In this document: positions 8,343 to 53,165 of the stretch, piece by piece
Numbering within the stretch: the stretch's first letter is position 1
Layout of the letters: each line of letters begins with the position of its first letter
Made by a program: the position numbers and the translations under genes
Assembly (NCBI RefSeq): GCF_041296385.1
Contig: NC_091013.1
Location: forward strand, 12,680,001 to 12,744,000
Direction of reading: 5' to 3'
DNA from: Aphelocoma coerulescens
Lineage: Eukaryota > Chordata > Aves > Passeriformes > Corvidae
DNA: 64,000 nt
The notes under the pieces: model-generated
The model's input: the letters and a program-made list of their open reading frames with translations, nothing else
Told to the model about the DNA's origin: nothing
Database searches by the model: none

Positions 8343-10431
8343 CAACAAAGCAAACAAACAAAAAACCCCAACAAAACTAAAGCCCCAACCTCTTAGTATT
8401 TGTTGTGATCTCAAAAATTGGTACAAAAATTAAAGCTAGAATTCTAATGAGAAAGATTCCAGTAGTCAATTGATAATATATTATTTTTAAGTTGAATAAT
8501 CTAAGAAGTATATAATAATCATGTGTATATTAAGAATACATAGTTTTTAGAAATTTAGAAATTTTCAGTGCTTTCAGAGAAAAGGAATTTACTCTAAAAT
8601 TGTAACAAGACACTTAAAAGTTTTAAAAAACTTTGGTTGGTTTTTCGAGGTATTTTTGTTTTTTGAAAAAGCCCCTCTGCTAGTTTACTGCAAAGTAAGG
8701 TTCAGGAGAATCAGCAGGTTTTGATGTAAGTGCTTTAACATCCACCAGGCTGTTTACGTGTATATGTTAAGCATTTTTGATTAGTCTTATAAAACAAGCA
8801 ACAGTCAACATTTATAATTCTTTTCCAAGTTAGAGTACATGCCAAACAAAAAGTTGAAGTGGAAATACGTAACTTAATGATTTAGCTGCCATTTCAATTT
8901 ATTAAACATATTAATAAAAATGTGTGTATTCATCGTTCCAGACATATGTGCATCCAATAAAGCAATAATAATTAGATTTGGCAGCCAACGAGCTGGCTTT
9001 TTCTGAAGCCTGAACTCTTCTTGACATAGCTAGCAGCTGTACCAAACTTCTTTCAAGAGTTTGTGTTTTCTGTCAGGAAAAGCCTATGAGAAGAAGCAGA
9101 CCTAGAGGGGTGACCTAAAGTCAATAACTGGTCTTCTGTAAACTGAACAGTGCTACAAAATTTTGCTTTTGTTCCTCACAATCAGCATATTTTTTCCTCT
9201 CATCCTGTCAGAAATTAAGAGAAGGAGAAAGTAAAAAAAAGACAGCAGGTTTGCATTCTTGCAGATTGACTGACAGCACTTATTCTAAGCCAAGTGATGA
9301 TTTTTCTCTTCAACCGCTATTTTGGACTTTGAGTTGAACAACTTCCCAATCAGTTTGAACTGTGTGAGTGACTTTGCAAAGGCGTACATGCCAAAAGGCA
9401 TAAATGGGTGTTTGGTAAGCAGTAAGGCTTGCTGTTTACCCCCTAGATACTTTTAACTGGAGTTGTAACACCCAAAAAATCTTTCTCTCTTGTGCAAATG
9501 AATAATGACATGTGGAGTCTTAGCAGTAAAGTACATTTTTTAAAGGAACTAGGCTGGTAGTAGAAAGGTAGAGCAGCTACTTCGCATGAAGAAATCACTT
9601 CTTCATATGGATTGACCATACTGAAATTAACTAGCATGGAAAGCAGAATAAACAGTTAATTGTTTTCTAGTTGCAGTGACTCCCTTTGTTGAATTGATTG
9701 GTTTGGACTTTTAAAGAGTAGCTCCATGTCTGAGTTTCATTGGTGGTTTATGGATATTCAGACCAGAACAGAAGTGGCCCTGGGTGACATCTGGTACCTT
9801 CTGAGTTCTGTCTTCCTGCAAGAATTTTAGGCCTTCTTTTTTAATTTAGAAATTTATCATTAAATAACTTCTGACTGCTAAGAAAGTACCTGAGAGAACA
9901 TTTTGCACTAGTAATGCCCTCCGTAAGCACAAAAAATTGTATCAGTTCCCTTTTAAAAACTATGTTTTGCTTTTTTAATTAAGAAAAAAAGGTAAAATTG
10001 TCATGCACATTATGTGGAACAATGAAGTTTATGGCTTCCTTATAATAAATATGCTGATAGAAGAAACAAATTAGAGAAATGTAAACATTAATTCTGTTTA
10101 CAGTCCTTTAGAAGTACTAAGTGCATGTTCTTAACTGAAAAAAAGGAAAAGTGTTTTGTGGGTTTTTTGGTGGAATCAGAAGAAATTTCCCCTTGATTTA
10201 ATAGGAAAGCCAGTCATGTAAATTGAAATGGGAAAAGGCTTACAATGTCAATTCTTCCAATCCACAGATAAGGTAGGTTGGTACCTTAATGCAGCTGAAG
10301 GAAGGAATGACCAACAGATATTGAATGAGAAAATGTAGATGAGGAAGACATTTTTTGTCAGATACAATACAGCAAAGCACAGATTGTAGTTGACAATAAT
10401 GAACAAAAACCCGATATAATTCACTAAAAGT

Positions 10432-11984: not shown

Positions 11985-11990
11985 GCCAGT
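11985..11990. repeat. Target-site duplication, left
   Basis: GCCAGT lies directly before the TG of the 5' LTR and matches 19260-19265. Six base pairs is the length usually made by alpha- and betaretroviral integrases. Confidence 0.95.
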
Positions 11991-12299
11991 TGTTGGAGAA
12001 TGGATTTATTGGGATCAATAAAGGAGCTGTGCAAGCTATTAAGCTGAAGGATTTTTGGGCCTGAGTGCGTGAGACACTTTCTGTGGGAAAGTCTCTGTGA
12101 AAAGCAAAACAGTTCCAGCCTGAGAAATTTCAGGGAGTAACGTACTTGCAGGTGTGATATCTAGGAGTATAAGGGAGGCAAGGACAAGATTCCTTTGAAC
12201 ATAACAAGATTGTGGAAGACTGCCAATGTAGCCTGATTGTGTAGAAATAGAAAAATATCCTGATAAGTAAGCCCCTTAGAAGCTAACAAGCTGGTATAC

Positions 12300-12306
12300 T
12301 ATTTAA
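12300..12306 (+). promoter_or_regulatory. TATA box of the ERV promoter
   Basis: TATTTAA followed by GTGCC, about 25-30 nt before the likely cap site near 12330. The same position in the solo LTR at 47936-48382 reads TATATAAGTGCC, which supports function. The copy in the 3' LTR is at 19126-19132. Confidence 0.8.
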
Positions 12307-12322
12307 GTGCCTCGAGACTGCT

Positions 12323-12328
12323 AATAAA
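12323..12328 (+). promoter_or_regulatory. Poly(A) signal AATAAA in the LTR
   Basis: AATAAA lies 17 nt beyond the TATA box. In the 3' LTR the matching signal (19149-19154) would set the end of the genomic RNA. The close TATA/AATAAA spacing implies a very short R region, as in avian leukosis-type LTRs. Confidence 0.75.
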
Positions 12329-12435
12329 TCGGAGTTTAGTTTTCAACCATATTGGCTGCTGTCTGTTCTTCTCCCCCCGCCGGGGATCCGAGCTCCCCGT
12401 ACCGCCGCGGCTTCCGACCTCTGGCTTCTTACATC

Positions 12436-12453
12436 TGGCGCCCGAACTCGGAC
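12436..12453 (+). promoter_or_regulatory. Primer binding site, tRNA-Lys type
   Basis: TGGCGCCCGAACTCGGAC begins 2 nt after the LTR. It agrees with the well-known tRNA-Lys3 primer site at 16 of 18 positions, differing at positions 13 and 14. The first 12 bases, which pair with the acceptor end, are perfect. It is unlike the tRNA-Trp site of avian leukosis viruses. A different Lys-like avian tRNA could be the true primer. Confidence 0.85.
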
Positions 12454-12497
12454 ACCGAACACCGAACACGGCACACCGAACTTGGAACACCGAACTT
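12443..12497 (+). repeat. CCGAAC-unit repeat overlapping the primer binding site
   Basis: The unit CCGAAC, mostly as ACACCGAAC, occurs five times in about 55 nt. The first copy lies inside the primer binding site. It looks like slippage or serial duplication of PBS-proximal sequence. Confidence 0.8.
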
Positions 12498-12743
12498 CGC
12501 GGAGTACGGGACTTTGGACTGGGACTGGTATTTTATTCCCGTTGCCCTGGCGGGAGCCTAATGCGGTGCCGGGGCAGCGCCGGCGGGTGTGGAGGGTCGG
12601 CCGACCTCTAGCCTGGGCCACCTTAACATCGGTGGTTCGCCGCTTGGCTGCTAAAGGCTTGCCTGGACGCTGCAGTACCCTGATACTTGGGGCGCGCGGA
12701 GGCGCGGGTGGTATCAGAGTAGTCCGCGGGTTTCTCGGTTTTT

Positions 12744-12946
12744 AGTTCGCGGTTTGCGGTTCGCGGTTCGTCCGCGGTTTTGTTTTCCGCGCTGAGGCGC
12801 GGGTTCGCGCTGATCGCGGGTACGGTCCGCGCTGGACGCGGGTTCGCGGGTTATCCGCGGGTAATAGTTTCGCGCAGAGACGCGGGGTTTTCGCTTTGGA
12901 TGCGGGTTGTGTTGTCGCGCTAAGTCGCGGGTTTGTGGACGCGGTC
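12744..12946 (+). promoter_or_regulatory. GC hairpin array in the 5' leader, candidate packaging element
   Basis: The 200 nt before gag contain repeats of TTCGCGG and then at least five short inverted repeats of the form CGCGC-loop-CGCGGG. They start near 12787, 12806, 12827, 12871 and 12915. The first has a perfect 6-bp stem (CCGCGC 12787-12792, GCGCGG 12797-12802) with a TGAG loop. The third has a 5-bp stem (12827-12831 with 12837-12841). Self-complementary CGCG/GCGC blocks could also pair between RNAs. The position between primer site and gag fits a dimerisation or packaging signal, which is inference. Confidence 0.7.
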
Positions 12947-14686
12947 ATGGAAACTCAGGCAGCCTTTAACGTGTTTTTACGCTTTTTAGAAAAGCAGGGA
13001 ATTAAGAATATAAACCTTAATAAGGAATTGGTGCAATTAGTGGAGTTTGGAATGGCAAGAGGGTATTTTAGGGAACCGGGATCGCTGTTCCAGGAGCAGC
13101 AGTGGAAGGAGTATGGTGATTGCTTGTGGTTTTTGGTTATTGACGATAACAAGGAAGCCAGGAAGTTAATGAAGCCGTGGAGAGCGGTCCTTACTTGTCT
13201 GACACAACATCGGGTTGAGCAACAGGTAGCGGCAGTTGCTACGGCTCAATTAGGCGGCAGTGATCCCCCGCCTGGTGTAATGACGCTCGAGAGCGATTAT
13301 GTTCCTACGCCGCCGGTGGGGTGCTCCGTGCCTGTGAAACCCCCTACAGATCTGACATCGGGTGCCGTACCTACCGCACCTCCTGCACCTCCGGTGCAAA
13401 CGCAGGCTGAGCTATCGACAACCGGCGATAAACAGTTAAGCCCGGAGGTCAGTAGATGTCACCCACAGCCTGCTGAAGCTAATGATCGCGGTGCTTGTAA
13501 CACCCCTGCGTTAGCGTGTACTCGGGTTGATTGGAAAAAGATCATAGAAACGGCCCTTGAAAATGGAGACTATCGTATCCCCGAAGCGATTGGGGATGTG
13601 GCTGCTTTTCCAGTAATGTACCAAGCAGCTGGGGGTAATGTAGTAGGGGAATACAGTCCGGTTAATTGGAAGCTGCTAACTCAGCTGCGGGGCACAGTTA
13701 ATGAGTCCGGCCTGCATAGTGAGCCTGCCAAGCAGATGCTGAATTATGTGTGGGGTTGTGGCATTCTTTGCCCGGAGGATATTAAAACTATAGTGAGAAT
13801 GATTATGACCCCTTCGCAGGTTATGCTGTGGCAGGCGCACTGGCAACGCCTTTGTGATACCTCTGCTAACACCCACCGTGATGCTCAGGACCCTTTACAT
13901 GGGGTTACGGTAGAACAGCTTATGGGCATTGGGCAGTTTGCCAGGGTGGAAATGCAGGTGCAGGTGGGACCTGAAAAACTATTGGAGGCTATGAGACTTG
14001 CCCGGCAGGCAATGTCTTTTGTAAAAACAGCACCCCTCCAGCCTTCCTATCTGTCGATTAAACAGGGCAGGGATGAATCCTTTTCCAGCTTTGTTGATAG
14101 GGTCACTAATGCCATACACAATTCGGATGTACAGGAATTTATGAAGGGACCATTGCTGAGGCAGTGTGTTATGGAGAATTGCAATTCGTACACCCGATCC
14201 ATCCTAGTTACCCTGCCTGCTGATGCACCGGTAGAGCTGATGTTAGATAGGATGAGCCGTGTGCCAGTGGGGCCACAGGCAATGTTAGTGGAAGCTGTTA
14301 AGGCAGTAGGGAAAGATCTCCTGCAAGCTCACACGCAAGCCTTTGCAGCTCTAGCCCCCCTGAAAGGAGCAGAAGCACCGAGAGATGGGTGCTATGTTAT
14401 CTCTAATGAAGTTAAGTGCTACCGATGTGGCCGGAGAGGGCACGTAAAACGCCAGTGTCGTGCCCAGCGACTATGGTGCCGTGTCTGCAGCCTCAACACT
14501 CACTCCACAGAAGCCTGCCCGAAGAAGTCGGGAAACGGGAGATCGAGCGCGAAGGGTCGCGGCGTGCGGACACCAACAGCGGCCCCTGCAGTAGCGATGC
14601 CAGTCTCCACAGCTCCCTGCAACCTGCCGACTGCCTTCGGCCAGCAACCCGAGGAAGCCTCGGCCTGGACCTGGCAACAGCAGTAG
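12947..14686 (+). CDS. gag: Gag polyprotein
   Basis: Intact 579-residue structural precursor that would assemble the core. I start at 12947 because GTCATGG is a good initiation context, whereas the upstream in-frame ATG at 12896 has a poor one and lies in the hairpin leader. The N-terminus METQ lacks the glycine needed for myristoylation. The matrix-like domain spans residues 1-95, followed by a Pro-rich linker with a PTAP late motif (142-145). Capsid runs from about 195 to 470, with the major homology region starting at Gln373 (QGRDESFSSFVDR). Nucleocapsid has two CCHC knuckles at 491-504 and 511-524, both CX2CX4HX4C. The C-terminal tail of about 50 residues is basic, then Ala/Pro/Gln-rich. 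The last 150 nt overlap pro in the -1 frame. Confidence 0.95.
   Translation: METQAAFNVFLRFLEKQGIKNINLNKELVQLVEFGMARGYFREPGSLFQEQQWKEYGDCLWFLVIDDNKEARKLMKPWRAVLTCLTQHRVEQQVAAVATAQLGGSDPPPGVMTLESDYVPTPPVGCSVPVKPPTDLTSGAVPTAPPAPPVQTQAELSTTGDKQLSPEVSRCHPQPAEANDRGACNTPALACTRVDWKKIIETALENGDYRIPEAIGDVAAFPVMYQAAGGNVVGEYSPVNWKLLTQLRGTVNESGLHSEPAKQMLNYVWGCGILCPEDIKTIVRMIMTPSQVMLWQAHWQRLCDTSANTHRDAQDPLHGVTVEQLMGIGQFARVEMQVQVGPEKLLEAMRLARQAMSFVKTAPLQPSYLSIKQGRDESFSSFVDRVTNAIHNSDVQEFMKGPLLRQCVMENCNSYTRSILVTLPADAPVELMLDRMSRVPVGPQAMLVEAVKAVGKDLLQAHTQAFAALAPLKGAEAPRDGCYVISNEVKCYRCGRRGHVKRQCRAQRLWCRVCSLNTHSTEACPKKSGNGRSSAKGRGVRTPTAAPAVAMPVSTAPCNLPTAFGQQPEEASAWTWQQQ
14530..14561 (+). promoter_or_regulatory. 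gag-pro -1 frameshift signal
   Basis: The heptamer GGGAAAC (14530-14536) is in the correct phase for Gag (G GGA AAC) and is a classic slippery site of betaretroviral gag-pro junctions. An 11-nt spacer leads to a 5-bp stem CGCGA/TCGCG (14548-14552 with 14557-14561) with an AGGG loop. The pro frame is open from here to 15363. A pseudoknot with downstream sequence is possible but I did not fold it. Confidence 0.9.
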
Positions 14687-15363
14687 ATGTGACCTTAATC
14701 GACGGCCGGCCCCAGAGAATTCCGACTGGGATTAAAGGACCTCTGGTTATTAATGGACAGTGTTATGGAGCTTTGCTGTTAGGTCGCTCTTCTAGTAGCC
14801 TGAGAGGACTTTTTGTATTGCCCGGCCTAATTGATAAAGACTATGAAGGGGAAATTTGCATCATGGCTCAAACTCATTTTCCACCTGTGCACATCCCAGC
14901 ACATACCAAGATCGCTCAGTTAATCCCTCTGCCTCACCTGGCTGCAGATATAGCCGAGGGAACGCCGGAGCGTGGTACCGGAAACTTCGGTTCAACGGGG
15001 AGCCTCGCTCTTCTCACTCTCCCACTAGCTCAGAGACCGGTTGCTACCGTGGTGTTCACTCGTGATGGTGATTCTATCACGCTATCTGCACTATTGGACT
15101 CTGGTGCTGACCTAACAATTGTGGCCAACTCGTCCTGGCCTCCGCATTGGCCCCTTCAACAAGCTATAGGGGGGGTCGCAGGTGTCGGAGGCACTGCTTC
15201 GGTACAGCGCAGCCGGGAGCGACTTCAAGTCATACTAGATGGACGCACTGCATCTGTTATTGTTACAGTAATGCCTCTGCCCGAGAAGGTCAATGCTTTA
15301 ATAGGGAGAGACGTGCTTGACCAGCTGGGATTTGTGCTGACTGCTGAGAGGCCTTTTCAGTAG
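14536..15363 (+). CDS. pro: dUTPase-protease (Pro), reached by -1 frameshift
   Basis: This open frame is -1 relative to gag and has about 275 codons after the slip site. The first half is a dUTPase, which hydrolyses dUTP and limits uracil incorporation. Motif 1 is GLDLAT (14662-14679, inside the gag overlap). Motif 2 is GRSSSSLRG. Motif 3 is GLIDKDYEGEI from 14824, with the expected Asp and Tyr. Motif 4 is AQLIPLP, and motif 5 is ERGTGNFGSTG (14968-15000). The second half is a retroviral aspartic protease with LLDSGAD (DSG at 15097-15105) and IGRDVLDQLG from 15301. It ends soon after this motif, so the C-terminal G-patch of many betaretroviral proteases is absent. All key residues look intact. 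It would be made only as a Gag-Pro fusion. Confidence 0.94.
   Translation, partial: REIEREGSRRADTNSGPCSSDASLHSSLQPADCLRPATRGSLGLDLATAVDVTLIDGRPQRIPTGIKGPLVINGQCYGALLLGRSSSSLRGLFVLPGLIDKDYEGEICIMAQTHFPPVHIPAHTKIAQLIPLPHLAADIAEGTPERGTGNFGSTGSLALLTLPLAQRPVATVVFTRDGDSITLSALLDSGADLTIVANSSWPPHWPLQQAIGGVAGVGGTASVQRSRERLQVILDGRTASVIVTVMPLPEKVNALIGRDVLDQLGFVLTAERPFQ
15348..15363 (+). promoter_or_regulatory. pro-pol junction with minimal overlap
   Basis: The pol frame, -1 relative to pro, is blocked by TGA at 15345-15347. The shift must therefore happen in the 16 nt before the pro stop TAG (15361-15363). The best candidate is G CCT TTT (15351-15357), where only the A-site codon could re-pair perfectly. 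A palindromic GCGGCCGC follows the stop at once. No standard X XXY YYZ heptamer is in phase. Confidence 0.6.
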
Positions 15364-17972
15364 CGGCCGCTGCACTGACTTTCCCGATAGCCTTGCACTG
15401 GATTACAAATGCTTCCGTGTGGATCGAGCAGTGGCCGCTCAAAGAGGAAAGTCTGAAGCAAGCTCATGCACTAGTACAGGAACAGTTGAGTCAGGGACAT
15501 TTGCGACCGTCCACGAGTCCGTGGAATACACCCATTTTTGTGGTCATGAAAAAATCTGGGAAGTATCGGCTGTTGCATGACTTGCGTGCTATTAATGCTC
15601 AGATGCAAGCTATGGGGGCCCTGCAGCCTGGCCTTCCCAATCCTGCAGTTGTGCCTGAGAATTGGCATTTGTTAATAGTGGACTTAAAGGACTGTTTCTT
15701 TACCATCCCATTGCATCCCGATGACATGCATCGTTTTGCTTCTACTCTCCCTGCAATAAACAGAGAGGGACCTGCTTCTCGCTATGAATGGACAGTACTT
15801 CCACAGGGGATGAAAAACAGTCCCACCTTGTGCCAGATGTATGTTGATGCCGCATTGAAGCCGGTTCGAGAGCAATGGCCAAAGGCCATCATTTATCACT
15901 ATATGGACGATATACTGATCGCTCAACCAGACCCTATTACCCCCCAACAGGAGCTCATGCTCACCCGACAGCTGAACCGGTATGGCCTGACCGTTGCGCC
16001 CGAAAAGGTTCAGCGTACACCTGTTTGGAAATATCTGGGGTGGAGTATTACTGAGTCACAAATCAAGCCACAGAAGGTGACAATTCAAACTAATCTCACA
16101 ACTTTGAAAGATGCACAAAAACTTTTGGGTGACCTGCAGTGGCTTAGACCTGTTGTTGGCATCAGTAACGAGGATCTGGAGGTGCTGCGGCCCCTCCTAA
16201 AAGGGACTGATCCTTCCCTGCCTGTTCAGCCCACACCAGAACAGGTAGAGACTATTCAGCGTATTAGTACTGTTATTGCAGACAGGGCAGTTGATCGCAT
16301 GGATGCTGATATTCCAGTCGACTTCACCGTCCTCCATGGAGAGACACAACTTATTGGTGCACTGACTCAGTGCAAAAACAAACAAGGGGAGCAGATTAAA
16401 GTCTTGGAATGGATGTTTACCAGCTTACAGCCTAAAACAACATTGCAACAGAAAATTGATAATGTGGCAGAACTGATACAGAAAGGCCGCATCCGTATAA
16501 TACAAGTCACTGGGCAAGAGCCAGGAACGATCTACTTGCCAATGAAAAGAGCTGAGCTCGAGTGGTATCTACTGAACTCTCAAACTTTGCAGATTAGCCT
16601 GCTAAGTGATGCCCAGCAGATTGAAGTACAATCTCTCAAGGCTCCGATACTGAAATGGATGACACAGCATACATGGATTCAGATTCCCAAAAGGAGCAAG
16701 CTTCCGCTGCAGGAAGCAGTAACTGTGTTCACTGATGCTGGAAAGAAGTCCCGGCGAGCAGCTGCGACGTGGCAGGTTCAAGGACAATGGTGTCATCAGA
16801 TACTAGAGGCTGAACCTGGAGACTCCTTGCAGACCCTTGAATTAGCTGCAGTGGTCTGGGCTTTTAAACGATGGTTGTCTGTTAAGCTTAATGTGGTGAC
16901 GGACTCGCTGTATGTTGCTGGCATTGTGGAACGGATAGAGGATGCTAGGATCAAAGACATAAACAACAAGCGTCTGTTTGAACTATTGCGCCAGCTTCAT
17001 TCAGCTATTGGGCAGAGATCTTGTGCCTATGCTGTAATACATGTCAGGAGTCATCTGTGGACAGAGGGCCTGGGCAAAGGAAATGCCTATGCAGATCAGC
17101 TAGTTTCTGTAACAGTGCCATTAAGTGAATTTGCAAAAGCACGGGAAGCCCATAGCACATTCCACCAGAATGCCAGAGGCCTTCACAGACAATTTGACAT
17201 TACCATGGAAGAAGCTAAAGGAATAGTGCGGGCATGTCCTACATGCAGCCATCATGGCCCGGGTCTCGGTATTGGGGTCAACCCCCGGGGTTTGGGCCCA
17301 AATGAACTGTGGCAAATGGATGTGACCCATGTTCCTGAGTTTGGCAGACTGAAATATGTGCATGTCACTATAGACACTTGCAGCAAGTTCATATGGGCAT
17401 CAGCACAGACAGGTGAAAAAGCCCTTCATGTGATACGACATCTGACCAGCTGTTTTGCTGTGATGGGGGTGCCGGAACAGATCAAGACAGACAACGGTCC
17501 TGCCTACGTTAGCGAGCGGCTTCGAAAGTTTTGCCAGCAGTGGAGTGTGCGACATGTCACTGGAATCCCTCATTTACCTACAGGACAAGCTATTGTGGAG
17601 CGTGCTAATCAGACTCTAAAGTTATATTTAGCCAAGTTCAGAGACATTTCAGACGTGCAGGAAAAATTAGCAAAAGCATTGTATGTGTTGAATTATTTGT
17701 GCTTGTTTGGGGATAATGATGCCGCACCTGCCTATCTCCACAGTGGTATTGTGGAAACAAAAAGGAAAGTAATCAGGCCTTTTTATGTGATGTATAGGCA
17801 TCCAGCTACAGGGATTTGGCAGGGGCCCGCTGAGGTTCGATATTCGGGCAAGGGGTACATGTGTGTGCTTACCCCAGCAGGACCTCTGTGGGTGCCCAGC
17901 CGCTGGACTCGTGCTACGGCAGAGCCTGCAGTGAACAGAGCCAACCCCGGATCCAGAGCTGCATCCACCTAA
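15348..17972 (+). CDS. pol: Pol: reverse transcriptase, RNase H, integrase
   Basis: Intact open frame of about 874 codons. Its true first residue depends on the frameshift, and no upstream ATG is used. Reverse transcriptase begins near 15440 and has LPQGMKNSP and the catalytic YMDD (15900-15911). RNase H has its four acidic residues in FTDAG (Asp at 16734), LELAAV (Glu at 16839), TDSLYV (Asp at 16902) and AYADQL (Asp at 17094). Integrase has the zinc-binding HX3H (17151, 17163) and CPTC (17235-17246). The catalytic triad is Asp 17319, Asp 17490 and Glu 17598, with exactly 35 residues between the last two. The C-terminal DNA-binding domain ends with a WVPSRW segment. Length matches alpharetroviral RT-IN. 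No key residue is missing, so the enzyme set looks functional. Confidence 0.96.
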   Translation, partial: EAFSVAAAALTFPIALHWITNASVWIEQWPLKEESLKQAHALVQEQLSQGHLRPSTSPWNTPIFVVMKKSGKYRLLHDLRAINAQMQAMGALQPGLPNPAVVPENWHLLIVDLKDCFFTIPLHPDDMHRFASTLPAINREGPASRYEWTVLPQGMKNSPTLCQMYVDAALKPVREQWPKAIIYHYMDDILIAQPDPITPQQELMLTRQLNRYGLTVAPEKVQRTPVWKYLGWSITESQIKPQKVTIQTNLTTLKDAQKLLGDLQWLRPVVGISNEDLEVLRPLLKGTDPSLPVQPTPEQVETIQRISTVIADRAVDRMDADIPVDFTVLHGETQLIGALTQCKNKQGEQIKVLEWMFTSLQPKTTLQQKIDNVAELIQKGRIRIIQVTGQEPGTIYLPMKRAELEWYLLNSQTLQISLLSDAQQIEVQSLKAPILKWMTQHTWIQIPKRSKLPLQEAVTVFTDAGKKSRRAAATWQVQGQWCHQILEAEPGDSLQTLELAAVVWAFKRWLSVKLNVVTDSLYVAGIVERIEDARIKDINNKRLFELLRQLHSAIGQRSCAYAVIHVRSHLWTEGLGKGNAYADQLVSVTVPLSEFAKAREAHSTFHQNARGLHRQFDITMEEAKGIVRACPTCSHHGPGLGIGVNPRGLGPNELWQMDVTHVPEFGRLKYVHVTIDTCSKFIWASAQTGEKALHVIRHLTSCFAVMGVPEQIKTDNGPAYVSERLRKFCQQWSVRHVTGIPHLPTGQAIVERANQTLKLYLAKFRDISDVQEKLAKALYVLNYLCLFGDNDAAPAYLHSGIVETKRKVIRPFYVMYRHPATGIWQGPAEVRYSGKGYMCVLTPAGPLWVPSRWTRATAEPAVNRANPGSRAAST

Positions 17973-18013
17973 GGAGGACAGCCTGAAAGGGCCTTTGTGA
18001 GGGTTTTTACCCT

Positions 18014-18094
18014 ATGTCAAGGCCTGCCCCAACTATGGCTCAGTGGTCCGTAAAGGCCAAGTTCAGATACCCTGTAATTGTTGCCATAAGTTAG
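18014..18094 (+). CDS. Short ORF after pol, possible env-leader remnant
   Basis: A 26-codon frame beginning MSRPAPTMAQ with a weakly hydrophobic end (YPVIVAIS), 42 nt after the pol stop. This is about where an env signal peptide would start. It is far too short to identify and may be chance. Confidence 0.2.
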   Translation: MSRPAPTMAQWSVKAKFRYPVIVAIS

Positions 18095-18187
18095 CTTGGG
18101 TTTAACACCAACTCAGCGGTGAAGTAAAAAGTTGTTTCTTTTTGAATAATCTCGAAATAAGAGTAGTTCTGATTTCTGTTTATTTCT

Positions 18188-18481
18188 GTTAAGGTCAAAT
18201 TCTTTTAAGTTTAATTTCTGTCAAGCTTGAGTTCTGCAGAATTTAAGTGATAAAGTTAAGTTATATAATGTTAAGGTAGTGTTAAGGTTAATTCGTGTTA
18301 AGTTTAAGTGTTGTTAAGTCTAAGCAAAGTTAAGTTCAAGTAAAGTTAATGTTAAGTTCTGCTAAGTTAAGTTGTGTAGAGTGTAAGTAATATTAAAGCT
18401 AAGTTAATATAACCTTGCAAATGCTTAATAAGTTAAGTATGTATTATTAATGTTAGTCGTGTAGTAATATCAAGTTAAGTA
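18188..18481 (+). repeat. Degenerate TTAAG-motif array
   Basis: About fourteen TTAAG words, mostly as GTTAAGT or TTTAAGT, plus several CTAAG variants occur in under 300 nt with irregular spacing of roughly 8-30 nt. Many are on the same strand within TAAGTTAAGT-like phrases. It could be an expanded low-complexity repeat or an RNA element used by the virus. Confidence 0.75.
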
Positions 18482-18505
18482 ACCTTTAATTTGCTGCTAC
18501 TAGCC

Positions 18506-18521
18506 CACAGCCATGGCTGTG
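18506..18521. repeat. 16-bp perfect palindrome
   Basis: CACAGCCATGGCTGTG is fully self-complementary and stands just after the TTAAG array. It may be a protein-binding or RNA hairpin site, or chance. Confidence 0.6.
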
Positions 18522-18798
18522 AAAGGCTTAAAAACTTATGCTGCTAAATTCTTCCTAACTACCTTTTCCCATTCCACTAATAGATAAGTAAGTTACATCA
18601 ATTAACTATATGATTATAGAAAAAGACGGTCTCAACTTAGAGGGATAGTTAAAGTTGTTAAGTTTAAAATTATAACTAGTTTTATTTGTATAGTATTTGA
18701 TTACTGTAGAACTGGCAGTATATTCACCTTGCCTCCTGATACTTGCAATAGACAATATATGAAGTCTACATTTGTGATCCCTCCAGCTTTGCTTGCAC

Positions 18799-18814
18799 AA
18801 AAGAAAACGGGGAA
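18799..18814 (+). promoter_or_regulatory. Polypurine tract
   Basis: AAAAGAAAACGGGGAA, interrupted by a single C, ends 2 nt before the 3' LTR. This is the expected primer site for plus-strand DNA synthesis. Confidence 0.88.
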
Positions 18815-18816
18815 TT

Positions 18817-19259
18817 TGTTGGAGAATGGATTTATTGGGATCAATAAAGGAGCTGTGCAAGCTATTAAGCTGAAGGATTTTTGGGCCTGAGTGCGTGAGA
18901 CACTTTCTGTGGGAAAGTCTCTGTGAAAAGCAAAACAGTTCCAGCCTGAGAAATTTCAGGGAGTAACGTACTTGCAGGTGTGATATCTAGGAGTATAAGG
19001 GAGGCAAGGACAAGATTCCTTTGAACATAACAAGATTGTGGAAGACTGCCAATGTAGCCTGATTGTGTAGAAATAGAAAAATATCCTGATAAGTAAGCCC
19101 CTTAGAAGCTAACAAGCTGGTATACTATTTAAGTGCCTCGAGACTGCTAATAAATCGGAGTTTAGTTTTCAACCATATTGGCTGCTGTCTGTTCTTCTCC
19201 CCCCGCCGGGGATCCGAGCTCCCCGTACCGCCGCGGCTTCCGACCTCTGGCTTCTTACA
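18817..19259 (+). mobile_element. 3' LTR of the ERV (443 bp)
   Basis: Same length as the 5' LTR, and base-for-base the same as far as I can read. Poly(A) signal at 19149-19154. A second AATAAA lies 26 nt into U3 (18843-18848). The identity means almost no time has passed since integration, or that gene conversion has occurred. Confidence 0.97.
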
Positions 19260-19265
19260 GCCAGT
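19260..19265. repeat. Target-site duplication, right
   Basis: GCCAGT follows the terminal CA of the 3' LTR and matches 11985-11990 exactly. Confidence 0.95.
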
Positions 19266-38636: not shown

Positions 38637-38771
38637 TCCTTCCCTTCCCTTCCCTTCCCTTCCCTTCCCTTCCCTTCCCTTCCCTTCCCTTCCCTTCCCT
38701 TCCCTTCCCTTCCCTTCCCTTCCCTTCCCTTCCCTTCCCTTCCCTTCCCTTCCCTTCCCTTCCCTTCCCTC
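38637..38771 (+). repeat. (TTCCC)n microsatellite, about 27 copies
   Basis: An uninterrupted pentanucleotide array. It gives a spurious 191-codon frame (38568-39143) with Phe-Pro-Ser-Leu periodicity, which I do not count as a gene. Confidence 0.97.
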
Positions 38772-38852
38772 CACATGTATCAACAAGGGGAAATACAGAA
38801 ATTTAAATACACTTGGAAAGAACTTTCTGGGGTCAAGAATTCTTCAAACATA

Positions 38853-39075
38853 TTTCTTTTTTCTTTTCTTTTCTTTTCTTTTCTTTTCTTTTCTTTTCTT
38901 TTCTTTTCTTTTCTTTTCTTTTCTTTTCTTTTCTTTTCTTTTCTTTTCTTTTCTTTTCTTTTCTTTTCTTTTCTTTTCTTTTCTTTTCTTTTCTTTTCTT
39001 TTTTCTTTTCTTCTTTTCTTTTCTTTTCTTTTGCTTTGCTTTTCTTGCTTTTCTTTTATTTTCTTTTCTTTTTCT
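38853..39075 (+). repeat. (TTTTC)n microsatellite, about 40 copies
   Basis: A nearly pure pentanucleotide array up to about 39000, then interrupted units with G and A substitutions to about 39075. It is 80 bp from the TTCCC array and on the same strand. Confidence 0.97.
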
Positions 39076-51969: not shown

Positions 51970-53165
51970 ACATTCACAGATCACAGAATGATGAAAGTAG
52001 GAGGGGACTGCTAGCAAGGTCATCTGGTCCAACCTCCCCGCTCAAGAAGGGCTATCACAGAGCACATGGCACAGGATTGTGTCCACATGTTTCTTAAATA
52101 TCTCCAGTGAGGGAGACTCTGCAACCTCTCTGGGCAACCTGTTCCTGTGCTCCATCACCTGCACAGCAAAGAAATTCTTCCTCATGTTCAGGCATAACTT
52201 CCCCTTTTCTAGTTTCTGCCTGTTGTCCTGTTCCTCAGCACCACCAAGAACTGCCTGGATCCATCCTCTTGCCACCCTCCCTTCAAATACTGAGAGATAC
52301 TCATTAGGTCCCCTCTCAGTTCTCTCTTCTTGAGACTGAACAGGCCCAACTCCCTCAGCCTTTCCTTGTATGAGAGGTGCTCCAGTCCCTTCATCATCCC
52401 TGTTGCCCTCCACTGGACCTGCTCCAGGAACTCTCTGTCTGTCTTGTCCTGAAGAGCCCAGAACTGAACATAGCACTCCAGATGCACTCATCTCACCAGG
52501 GCTGAGTGGAGGGGCAGGATCCCCTCCCTGACCTGCTGGCAATGCTGTTCCTAATGCACCCCAGGATTCATTGGTGTTCCTGGCCCCCAGGGCACTGCTG
52601 GCTCGTGGACAGCTCGTTGTCCACCAGGAGCCCCAGGTCCCTCTCCTCAGAGCTGCTTTCCAGCAGGTCGGCCCCCAGCCTGTGCTGGTGCCTGGGGTTG
52701 TTCTTGCCCAGGTGCAGGACCCTGCATTTGCCCTGGCTGAGTTTCAGAGCGTTCCTCTGCCCATCTCTCCAGCCTGTCAAGGCCCTTCTGAAGGGCTGCA
52801 CAGCTCTCGGGGGTATCAGCCACTCCTCCCAGCTTTGTGCCATCAGTGAACTCACTGAGGAGGCCTCTGCCCCTTCCTCCAAGTCATTGATGAATAAGTT
52901 AAACAATACTGGGCCCAGTATTGAACCTTGAGGGACACCTCTAGTGACAGGCCTCCAACTAGACCCTGTGCTACTGATTATGATCCTCTGGGATCTGCCA
53001 GTCAGCCAGTTCTCAATCCACCTCTCTGTCCACTCATCCAGTCTGCAGTTCCTGAACTTGTACACTGGAGGATATCACAGGAGAAAGTGTCAGAAGCTTT
53101 GCTGAAGTCCTGGTAGACAGCATCCATGGCTCTCCCCTCATCTATCCAGCCAGTTAACTTCACTG
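51970..53165 (-). mobile_element. CR1 LINE, 1.2-kb 5'-truncated copy
   Basis: The longest LINE piece in the window. On the minus strand the order is reverse transcriptase (53065-52568) with TRGVPQGSILGPVLFNLFIND, then the region where FADDTK is expected, reading FTDGTK at 52850-52833 in another frame. Next come GKCRVLHLGKNNP and LGADLLESSSEERDLG, followed by the C-terminal part (52487-52209) with RATGMMKGLEHLSYKERLRELGLFSL. The 3' UTR ends near 51970 with TCTGTGA-type terminal repeats. The changed catalytic motif and frame breaks show it is inactive. Confidence 0.93.

What the first reader, a model, noticed from the sequence alone, without database searches (positions are those of the whole stretch)
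11985..19265. Very young, coding-complete but env-less provirus
Both 443-bp LTRs look identical, the 6-bp target duplication is perfect, and gag, pro and pol are all open with every catalytic residue visible. Together these point to very recent insertion and a lineage that still retrotransposes or did so recently. Such loci are often polymorphic between individuals.
Basis: partly seen in the sequence, partly recalled or inferred. Interest (0 to 1): 0.85.

Follow-up and report, generated by a model that had tools for sequence, protein, structure and literature searches.

The report
Young jay retrovirus with freeloading partner
This is a very recently inserted, gene-complete but envelope-less retrovirus-like jumping element in a jay genome, and it belongs to a group whose end repeats are shared with, and seemingly swapped onto, a shorter, non-coding hitchhiker element.

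Summary
Confirmed. The LTRs (11991-12433, 18817-19259; 443 bp) have 0 differences and are flanked by GCCAGT. Gag, dUTPase-protease and RT-RNaseH-integrase are open with catalytic residues present; no env fits. The host is inferred to be the Florida Scrub-Jay: a homologous protein lies on a contig of exactly C34's length, and C34-C38 sum to the published W. The element is a betaretrovirus-like (ERVK) retrotransposon. Zero LTR differences bound its age at about 0.2-1.8 My, depending on the rate. Eight of ten other long copies examined have perfect, different 6-bp duplications and 0-2 LTR mismatches: recent mobility. Pol is under strong purifying selection; older copies sit mostly on the W (24 of 27 places). 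The core has one left junction in 20 of 20 copies examined, yet on the LTR tree short and long copies are interleaved (one clade rejected, p_AU 0.002), and three shorts carry an LTR identical to one of a long copy. Best reading: an autonomous/non-autonomous pair like MusD/ETn whose passenger is repeatedly refitted with current LTRs. Polymorphism could not be tested. Ordinary in kind, moderately interesting.

The parts
11985..11990 (.). 5' copy of target-site duplication GCCAGT
   Evidence: sequence
11991..12433 (+). 5' LTR (443 bp, TG...CA), TATA-like TATACTATTTAAG at 12295, AATAAA at 12323
   Evidence: identical to 3' LTR
12436..12453 (+). primer binding site, first 12 bases as in a tRNA-Lys PBS (recalled)
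   Evidence: sequence; a tRNA gene with the exact 18-nt end was not found by pattern, so the primer is uncertain
12434..13027 (+). leader plus first 27 gag codons, the 5' stretch kept by the short non-autonomous class
12947..14686 (+). gag, 579 aa, starts MET (no glycine at position 2), capsid domains, CCHC boxes
14416..15363 (+). pro frame: dUTPase and aspartic protease (DSG)
14530..14536 (+). gag/pro slip site GGGAAAC in the gag frame
   Evidence: function inferred
15351..15357 (+). probable pro/pol slip site GCCTTTT (non-canonical), kept in 20 of 21 copies aligned
   Evidence: function inferred
15348..17972 (+). pol frame: RT (YMDD), RNase H, integrase (HHCC, D,D-35-E)
17973..18816 (+). 3' non-coding region with imperfect ~16-bp tandem repeats (18178-18388); 18178-18816 is kept by the short class, its left limit blurred by the repeats; no env
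18799..18816 (+). polypurine tract and spacer AAAAGAAAACGGGGAATT
   Evidence: sequence
18817..19259 (+). 3' LTR, identical to 5' LTR
19260..19265 (.). 3' copy of target-site duplication GCCAGT
   Evidence: sequence

Best explanation
The window holds a recently inserted, coding-complete, env-less betaretrovirus-like (ERVK) retrotransposon of the Florida Scrub-Jay, one of several near-identical dispersed copies of an active or very recently active family. Its LTR drives a full-length RNA; Gag, Gag-Pro and Gag-Pro-Pol come from two -1 frameshifts; the RNA is packaged in intracellular particles, reverse transcribed and integrated with a 6-bp duplication. The same machinery very probably also moves, in trans, a 3.1-3.5 kb non-coding passenger that keeps only LTRs, leader and 3' region. 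Co-packaging of the two RNAs lets reverse transcriptase switch templates, so the passenger core, which arose once, is repeatedly refitted with the LTRs of whichever long copies are active. Shown: anatomy, identical LTRs, dispersed insertions, selection on pol, a shared core junction, LTR trees that mix short and long copies. Inferred: host name, RNA and particle steps, trans-mobilisation, and template switching as the cause.
For: LTRs 0/443 differences and perfect TSD. Domains and motifs. Ten other long copies: 5'-3' LTR mismatches 0,0,1,0,0,2,1,1,1,2; 8 of 10 with perfect, distinct 6-bp TSDs. Of 20 copies whose pol stretch was fetched, the four nearest differ at 10-15 of about 2627 nt; pol dN/dS 0.04-0.13 in 20 comparisons. 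Six short elements, 6 of 6 with perfect TSDs, LTR mismatches 6,4,4,0,1,0, sharing window 12434-13027 and 18178-18816 but not gag-pro-pol. The core matches at 40 of 40 scored candidates (413 first-look) at 86-100%. Same left junction in 20 of 20 shorts. LTR tree, 23 long and 20 short: 14 label changes (shuffled mean 14.2), shorts as one clade rejected, p_AU 0.0023; leader and 3' trees 6 changes each, p_AU 0.005 and 1.3e-6. The 3' LTR of long copy C639 is identical to both LTRs of short sC2, the 3' LTR of C39 and the 5' LTR of C658a, while the adjoining 3' region of sC2 is 88.4% identical to C639's. A short's own two LTRs are each other's nearest in 12 of 20, tied in 2.
Against: No expression, particle or mobilisation data. 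LTR identity alone allows up to about 1.8 My at a slow rate. In 6 of 20 shorts another LTR is nearer than the element's own partner and sC22 has a clustered 5'-only patch, so conversion between chromosomal copies also acts or may explain more. Leader and 3' trees, though rejecting one clade, do cluster by class (6 changes against a shuffled mean near 14, 0 of 500 as low), so exchange is clear mainly in the LTR. The trees are quick ones on 443-656 columns with many open branches. Only best candidates were scored in each genome search, so counts are lower bounds biased to near copies. No exact tRNA match to the PBS was found. Whether the short class is closer to another helper family was not tested.
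Confidence: 0.82

Rival explanations
1. LTR sharing between long and short copies comes from gene conversion or ectopic recombination between chromosomal copies, not from template switching during reverse transcription.
For: sC22 differs between its own LTRs at a cluster (12064, 12068, 12069) matching another haplotype; in 6 of 20 shorts another LTR is nearer than the element's own partner.
Against: Own partner LTR is nearest in 12 of 20 and tied in 2, as expected if the swap preceded insertion; sC2 and C39 are fresh insertions on different contigs with perfect 6-bp TSDs and the C639-type LTR at both ends (0 and 1 mismatches).
Confidence: 0.2
2. The identical LTRs of the window copy reflect recent LTR-LTR homogenisation or an assembly collapse of an older insertion.
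For: LTR dating is blind to conversion, and conversion-like patches exist in the family.
Against: The 5' flank is unique; gag, pro and pol are open; pol is within 10-15 nt of four dispersed copies; two other loci carry the exact same LTR at both ends (C8a, C7); the published assembly used Hifiasm and reads of mean length 14.55 kb, longer than the element (PMC11631490, passages).
Confidence: 0.05
3. The short elements are mobilised mainly by another ERVK family of this genome (pol about 57% identical), and only resemble the window family.
For: That family has 10 open pol copies among the scored rows, 7 with equal score, so it has been recently active.
Against: Shorts share LTR, leader and 3' region with the window family: 98-99% LTR in the youngest, 85-97% in the other two stretches for the first six. 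Their ends were not compared with the second family's.
Confidence: 0.1

Closest known systems
MusD / ETn pair of mouse (betaretrovirus-like ERVs)
   Same: Env-less coding-competent element and a non-coding element sharing LTR and internal sequences; there MusD was shown to supply the machinery for ETn (review PMC6466679, passages).
   Different: Bird host; core looks like a degenerate gag-like stretch; repeated refitting of LTRs is tested here with trees; no mobilisation assay.
mysTR and related non-autonomous ERVK subfamilies of deer mouse
   Same: Autonomous and non-autonomous ERVKs sharing mainly the region between pol and 3' LTR, proposed to arise by recombination (PMC10089650, passages).
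   Different: Here leader and LTR are shared too, and LTR exchange is tested.
LTR swapping in soybean (Du et al. 2010, seen only as a reference entry) and concerted evolution of regulatory sequences in grass pararetroviruses (PMC5491270, passages)
   Same: A non-autonomous element keeps its partnership by exchanging regulatory sequences with a partner.
   Different: Plants, other element classes.
corCorLTRK1b ERVK insertion (2.25 kb) near NDP in crows
   Same: Short, recent ERVK insertion in a corvid (PMC7341801, passages).
   Different: LTR 296 bp rather than 443; sequences not compared.
Avian ERVK-like Pol proteins, e.g. Amazona collaria A0A8B9GBW3 (61% over 97%) and Gallus gallus XP_025000333.1 (58% over 78%)
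   Same: Same Pol domains; the Gallus record also has gag, dUTPase and protease domains.
   Different: Among the 120 of 572 hits listed, no named one exceeds 61% identity; the best unnamed one has 70% over 94%.

Membership tests
ERVK / betaretrovirus-like class II ERV | 6-bp target duplication | tested here: met
   8 of 10 other long copies
ERVK / betaretrovirus-like class II ERV | dUTPase in the pro frame; gag, pro, pol each shifted by -1 | tested here: met
   GGGAAAC at 14530 in frame, GCCTTTT at the second shift
ERVK / betaretrovirus-like class II ERV | Pol nearest to betaretroviral proteins | tested here: met
   best PDB chain by sequence 7sr6 (listed as Polymerase; HERV-K is my recollection), then integrases 7usf and 3jca (MMTV recalled)
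ERVK / betaretrovirus-like class II ERV | tRNA-Lys primer | tested here: inconclusive
   12-base core fits (recalled); no tRNA gene with the exact 18-nt end by pattern
ERVK / betaretrovirus-like class II ERV | Gag capsid nearest to betaretroviruses | tested here: inconclusive
   best match 5a9e (listed as deltaMBD Gag; RSV recalled) 61 bits; best HERV-K CA 40.6 bits
Alpharetrovirus | no dUTPase, alpha-type Pol | tested here: not met
   dUTPase present; I recognised no alpharetroviral chain among the best 60 of 327 Pol matches (names partly recalled)
Complete retrovirus | env gene | tested here: not met
   844 bp without an env-sized frame; two frames there without Pfam match
ETn/MusD-type autonomous/non-autonomous pair | short non-coding element sharing LTR and terminal sequences with a coding-complete one | tested here: met
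   a 303-aa core frame is open in six of six copies but shows no sign of selection
ETn/MusD-type autonomous/non-autonomous pair | trans-mobilisation by the long element's proteins | not testable with these tools
   needs an assay

The most novel reading that the evidence does not exclude
A long-lived, dependent passenger core in a songbird survives turnover of its helper by repeatedly swapping on the LTRs (and at times parts of the 3' region) of the currently active long subfamily, so that its ends track the helper while the core keeps its own, older history; the W chromosome stores copies of past helpers and makes this history readable.
Probability: 0.58. Interest if true: 0.62.

Novelty: new member of a known kind. 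Interest (0 to 1): 0.5.

Why it matters
A young, coding-complete ERVK with fresh insertions outside the W in a closely monitored, threatened songbird is a directly testable source of new mutations. The paired non-coding class, with an older series of copies on the W, shows how a dependent retroelement may keep a helper over time in a vertebrate, a question that I found documented mainly in plants and rodents. The stretches that both classes keep (12434-13027 and about 18178-18816) outline likely cis-acting sequences of the element.

Tried and rejected
A selected protein in the short class: the 303-aa frame is open in six of six copies, but pooled dN/dS 0.65 is no different from the other two frames (0.53, 0.68), and 34% of random draws with as many point changes stay open. 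Rejected as evidence for function; the matching database protein P0124 reads as this element annotated as a gene.

A captured host gene in the core: not supported. The matches found are gag-like but weak: BLASTP against seven gags, collinear, E 0.02-0.04 in that tiny set, and a partial Gag_p24 match in another frame (E 0.024, 15 bits against a cut-off of 24). The four database hits have no domain. Best read as a degenerate gag fragment; no donor was found.

An empty allele in the same assembly: the 600-bp 5' flank has one place only; the 3' flank was not searched.

Exact tRNA primer: none by pattern. Loss of Gag myristoylation as a sign of intracellular life: not used, because related gags here also begin, by the start I assume, without glycine, and RSV Gag, by my recollection, is not myristoylated.

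A gametologue test for the W (family PF18375) was asked but did not complete; the W assignment rests on lengths: C34-C38 sum to 41.456 Mb, the paper gives 41.5 Mb with a 4.7 Mb piece, and C36 has 4.68 Mb.

Full report
Observation. The two LTRs (11991-12433, 18817-19259) are identical over 443 bp and flanked by GCCAGT. Gag starts at ATG 12947; the pro frame (14416-15363) carries dUTPase and protease; the pol frame (15348-17972) carries RT, RNase H and integrase. Motifs are in place: DSG, YMDD, RNase H acids, HHCC, D,D-35-E. GGGAAAC at 14530 lies in the gag frame; the 16-nt pro/pol overlap holds only GCCTTTT as a candidate slip site. It is kept in 20 of 21 aligned copies that differ from the window by up to 14.8% in pol, which suggests that it works. 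A polypurine tract abuts the 3' LTR. No env fits in the 844 bp after pol.

Host. The window lies on C1 of a 1.33 Gb, 660-contig genome. A database protein matching the short class (90% identity) is named Aphelocoma coerulescens and lies on a contig of 20,979,278 bp, the exact length of C34. The Florida Scrub-Jay assembly paper (PMC11631490, abstract and passages) reports 1.33 Gb, a W of about 21 Mb plus 20.5 Mb unlocalised (41.5 Mb), one W piece of 4.7 Mb, and about 90% interspersed repeats on the W. C34-C38 sum to 41.456 Mb. I take C34-C38 as the W; this is an inference.

Age. Zero differences in 443 bp give a 95% upper bound of about 1.8 My at 1.9e-9 per site and year (recalled avian rate). 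With the rate 0.0158 per site and My used for crows in PMC7341801 (passage) the same formula, worked by hand, gives about 0.2 My. Of 20 copies whose pol stretch was fetched, the four nearest differ from the window at 10, 13, 14 and 15 sites of about 2627; these include replication errors, so I do not turn them into years.

Family. The LTR search scored 40 of 1178 candidates and returned 42 rows. Ten other long copies were examined: LTR mismatches 0-2, eight with perfect and distinct TSDs; the other two (C635) are one tandem segmental duplication with a damaged 5' LTR. The pol search scored 53 of 11,578 candidates and gave 56 rows; after dropping 14 rows of other families (57-65% identity) and 3 second pieces, 39 places remain. 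Of 12 at 98% or more, 4 are on the W; of 27 below 98%, 24 are on the W (Fisher p 0.0009; the W is 3.1% of the assembly). Three C35 rows look like one duplicated segment, so places are not all independent. This fits the W-refugium picture of PMC8310711 (passages). Pol dN/dS against the window copy is 0.04-0.13 in 20 comparisons: the lineage propagates through working copies. Two long-class copies with fresh LTRs (0 and 1 mismatches) lack internal parts: C35:2478508 misses a stretch across the RNase H/integrase boundary, and C8:25826792 is about 1.47 kb shorter with gag whole and no pol row among those scored. That is expected if defective RNAs are moved in trans, though deletion after insertion is not excluded.

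The short class. Six LTR pairs spaced about 2.85 kb proved to be 3.27-3.35 kb elements with perfect TSDs (6 of 6) and LTRs 98.4-99.3% identical to the window's. They keep window 12434-13027 (leader and 27 gag codons) and 18178-18816, with about 1.24 kb of other sequence between; the right limit is blurred by repeats. That core matches at 40 of 40 scored candidates (413 first-look) at 86-100%. Fourteen further shorts were added, old ones included: total 3.1-3.5 kb as measured (one with a cut 5' LTR), core 86-99.6% against sC2, LTR 74-98.6% to the window's; over the 20 shorts, mismatches between an element's own LTRs run from 0 to 16. Two fetched places were dropped because the stretch missed an LTR (L111, L119). 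The left junction is the same in 20 of 20 (one with a base change beside it): one origin.

LTR exchange. On the LTR tree of 23 long and 20 short copies the labels change 14 times, the shuffled mean being 14.2; well supported branches force at least 7; holding shorts together costs 293 log units, p_AU 0.0023. Leader and 3' trees need 6 changes each and also reject one clade (p_AU 0.005 and 1.3e-6), but there the classes do cluster (shuffled mean near 14, 0 of 500 shuffles as low). So mixing is greatest in the LTR, less in the neighbouring shared stretches, and the core has one origin. The 3' LTR of long copy C639 is identical to both LTRs of short sC2, to the 3' LTR of C39 and to the 5' LTR of C658a, while the adjoining 3' region of sC2 is 88.4% identical to C639's. 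sC34b and sC34c are mosaics in the 3' region, with switches between 18392 and 18394 and between 18439 and 18443. The old short C4 has an LTR about 7% from that of long copy C34_6.38 but about 25% from the window's. C639 itself joins a window-like interior to an older U3 haplotype.

How the exchange happens. An element's own two LTRs are each other's nearest in 12 of 20 shorts, tied in 2, and another LTR is nearer in 6; sC22 shows a 5'-only patch. Exchange before insertion (template switching between co-packaged RNAs) is the best reading for most, but conversion between chromosomal copies also leaves marks. The trees are quick ones with 443-656 columns and many open branches.

Relation to known kinds. 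By domains, TSD and Pol matches the element is a class II, ERVK/betaretrovirus-like ERV; Gag scores best against 5a9e (RSV by recollection). The pair works like MusD/ETn (PMC6466679, passages), resembles the deer mouse case (PMC10089650, passages), and the exchange of ends resembles soybean LTR swapping (reference entry only) and grass pararetroviruses (PMC5491270, passages). I saw no report of this particular pair in the listings of the nine paper searches; most subscription papers and bioRxiv preprints are not held, so this does not show that it is unpublished.

Not shown. Expression, particles, mobilisation, polymorphism and presence in relatives. The insertion's 5' flank is single-copy here, so no empty allele could be seen.

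Noticed in passing
G000 C3, C4, C5, C8, C9, C21, C35, C37, C100, C474; gag at C5:25684011-25685729 and others: A second ERVK family, pol about 57% and gag about 43% identical to this one, with 10 open pol copies among the scored rows, 7 of them with the same score: possibly an even more recent burst.
   Followed up: no
window 15351-15357: The 16-nt pro/pol overlap has only the non-canonical slip heptamer GCCTTTT, kept in 20 of 21 copies aligned.
   Followed up: partly
window 15458-15745: Rfam RSV_RNA (retroviral stability element) match, 51 bits, below its gathering score of 105; may be mere RT coding similarity.
   Followed up: no
window 18178-18388: Imperfect ~16-bp tandem repeats in the 3' non-coding region, kept in part by the short class; a candidate RNA export or packaging element.
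   Followed up: no
G000 C635:1133587-1166216: Provirus inside a tandem duplication with a unit of about 16.1 kb (LTR spacings 6804 and 9304-9307); the two pol pieces are identical.
   Followed up: partly
G000 C22:3816290-3819543: Short element whose 5' LTR alone carries a three-site U3 patch of another haplotype, as after gene conversion.
   Followed up: partly
window 52568-53074 minus: Fragment that looks like a non-LTR reverse transcriptase, CR1-like by recollection.
   Followed up: no
window 38638-39072: Long (CCTTC)n and (TTTTC)n arrays.
   Followed up: no
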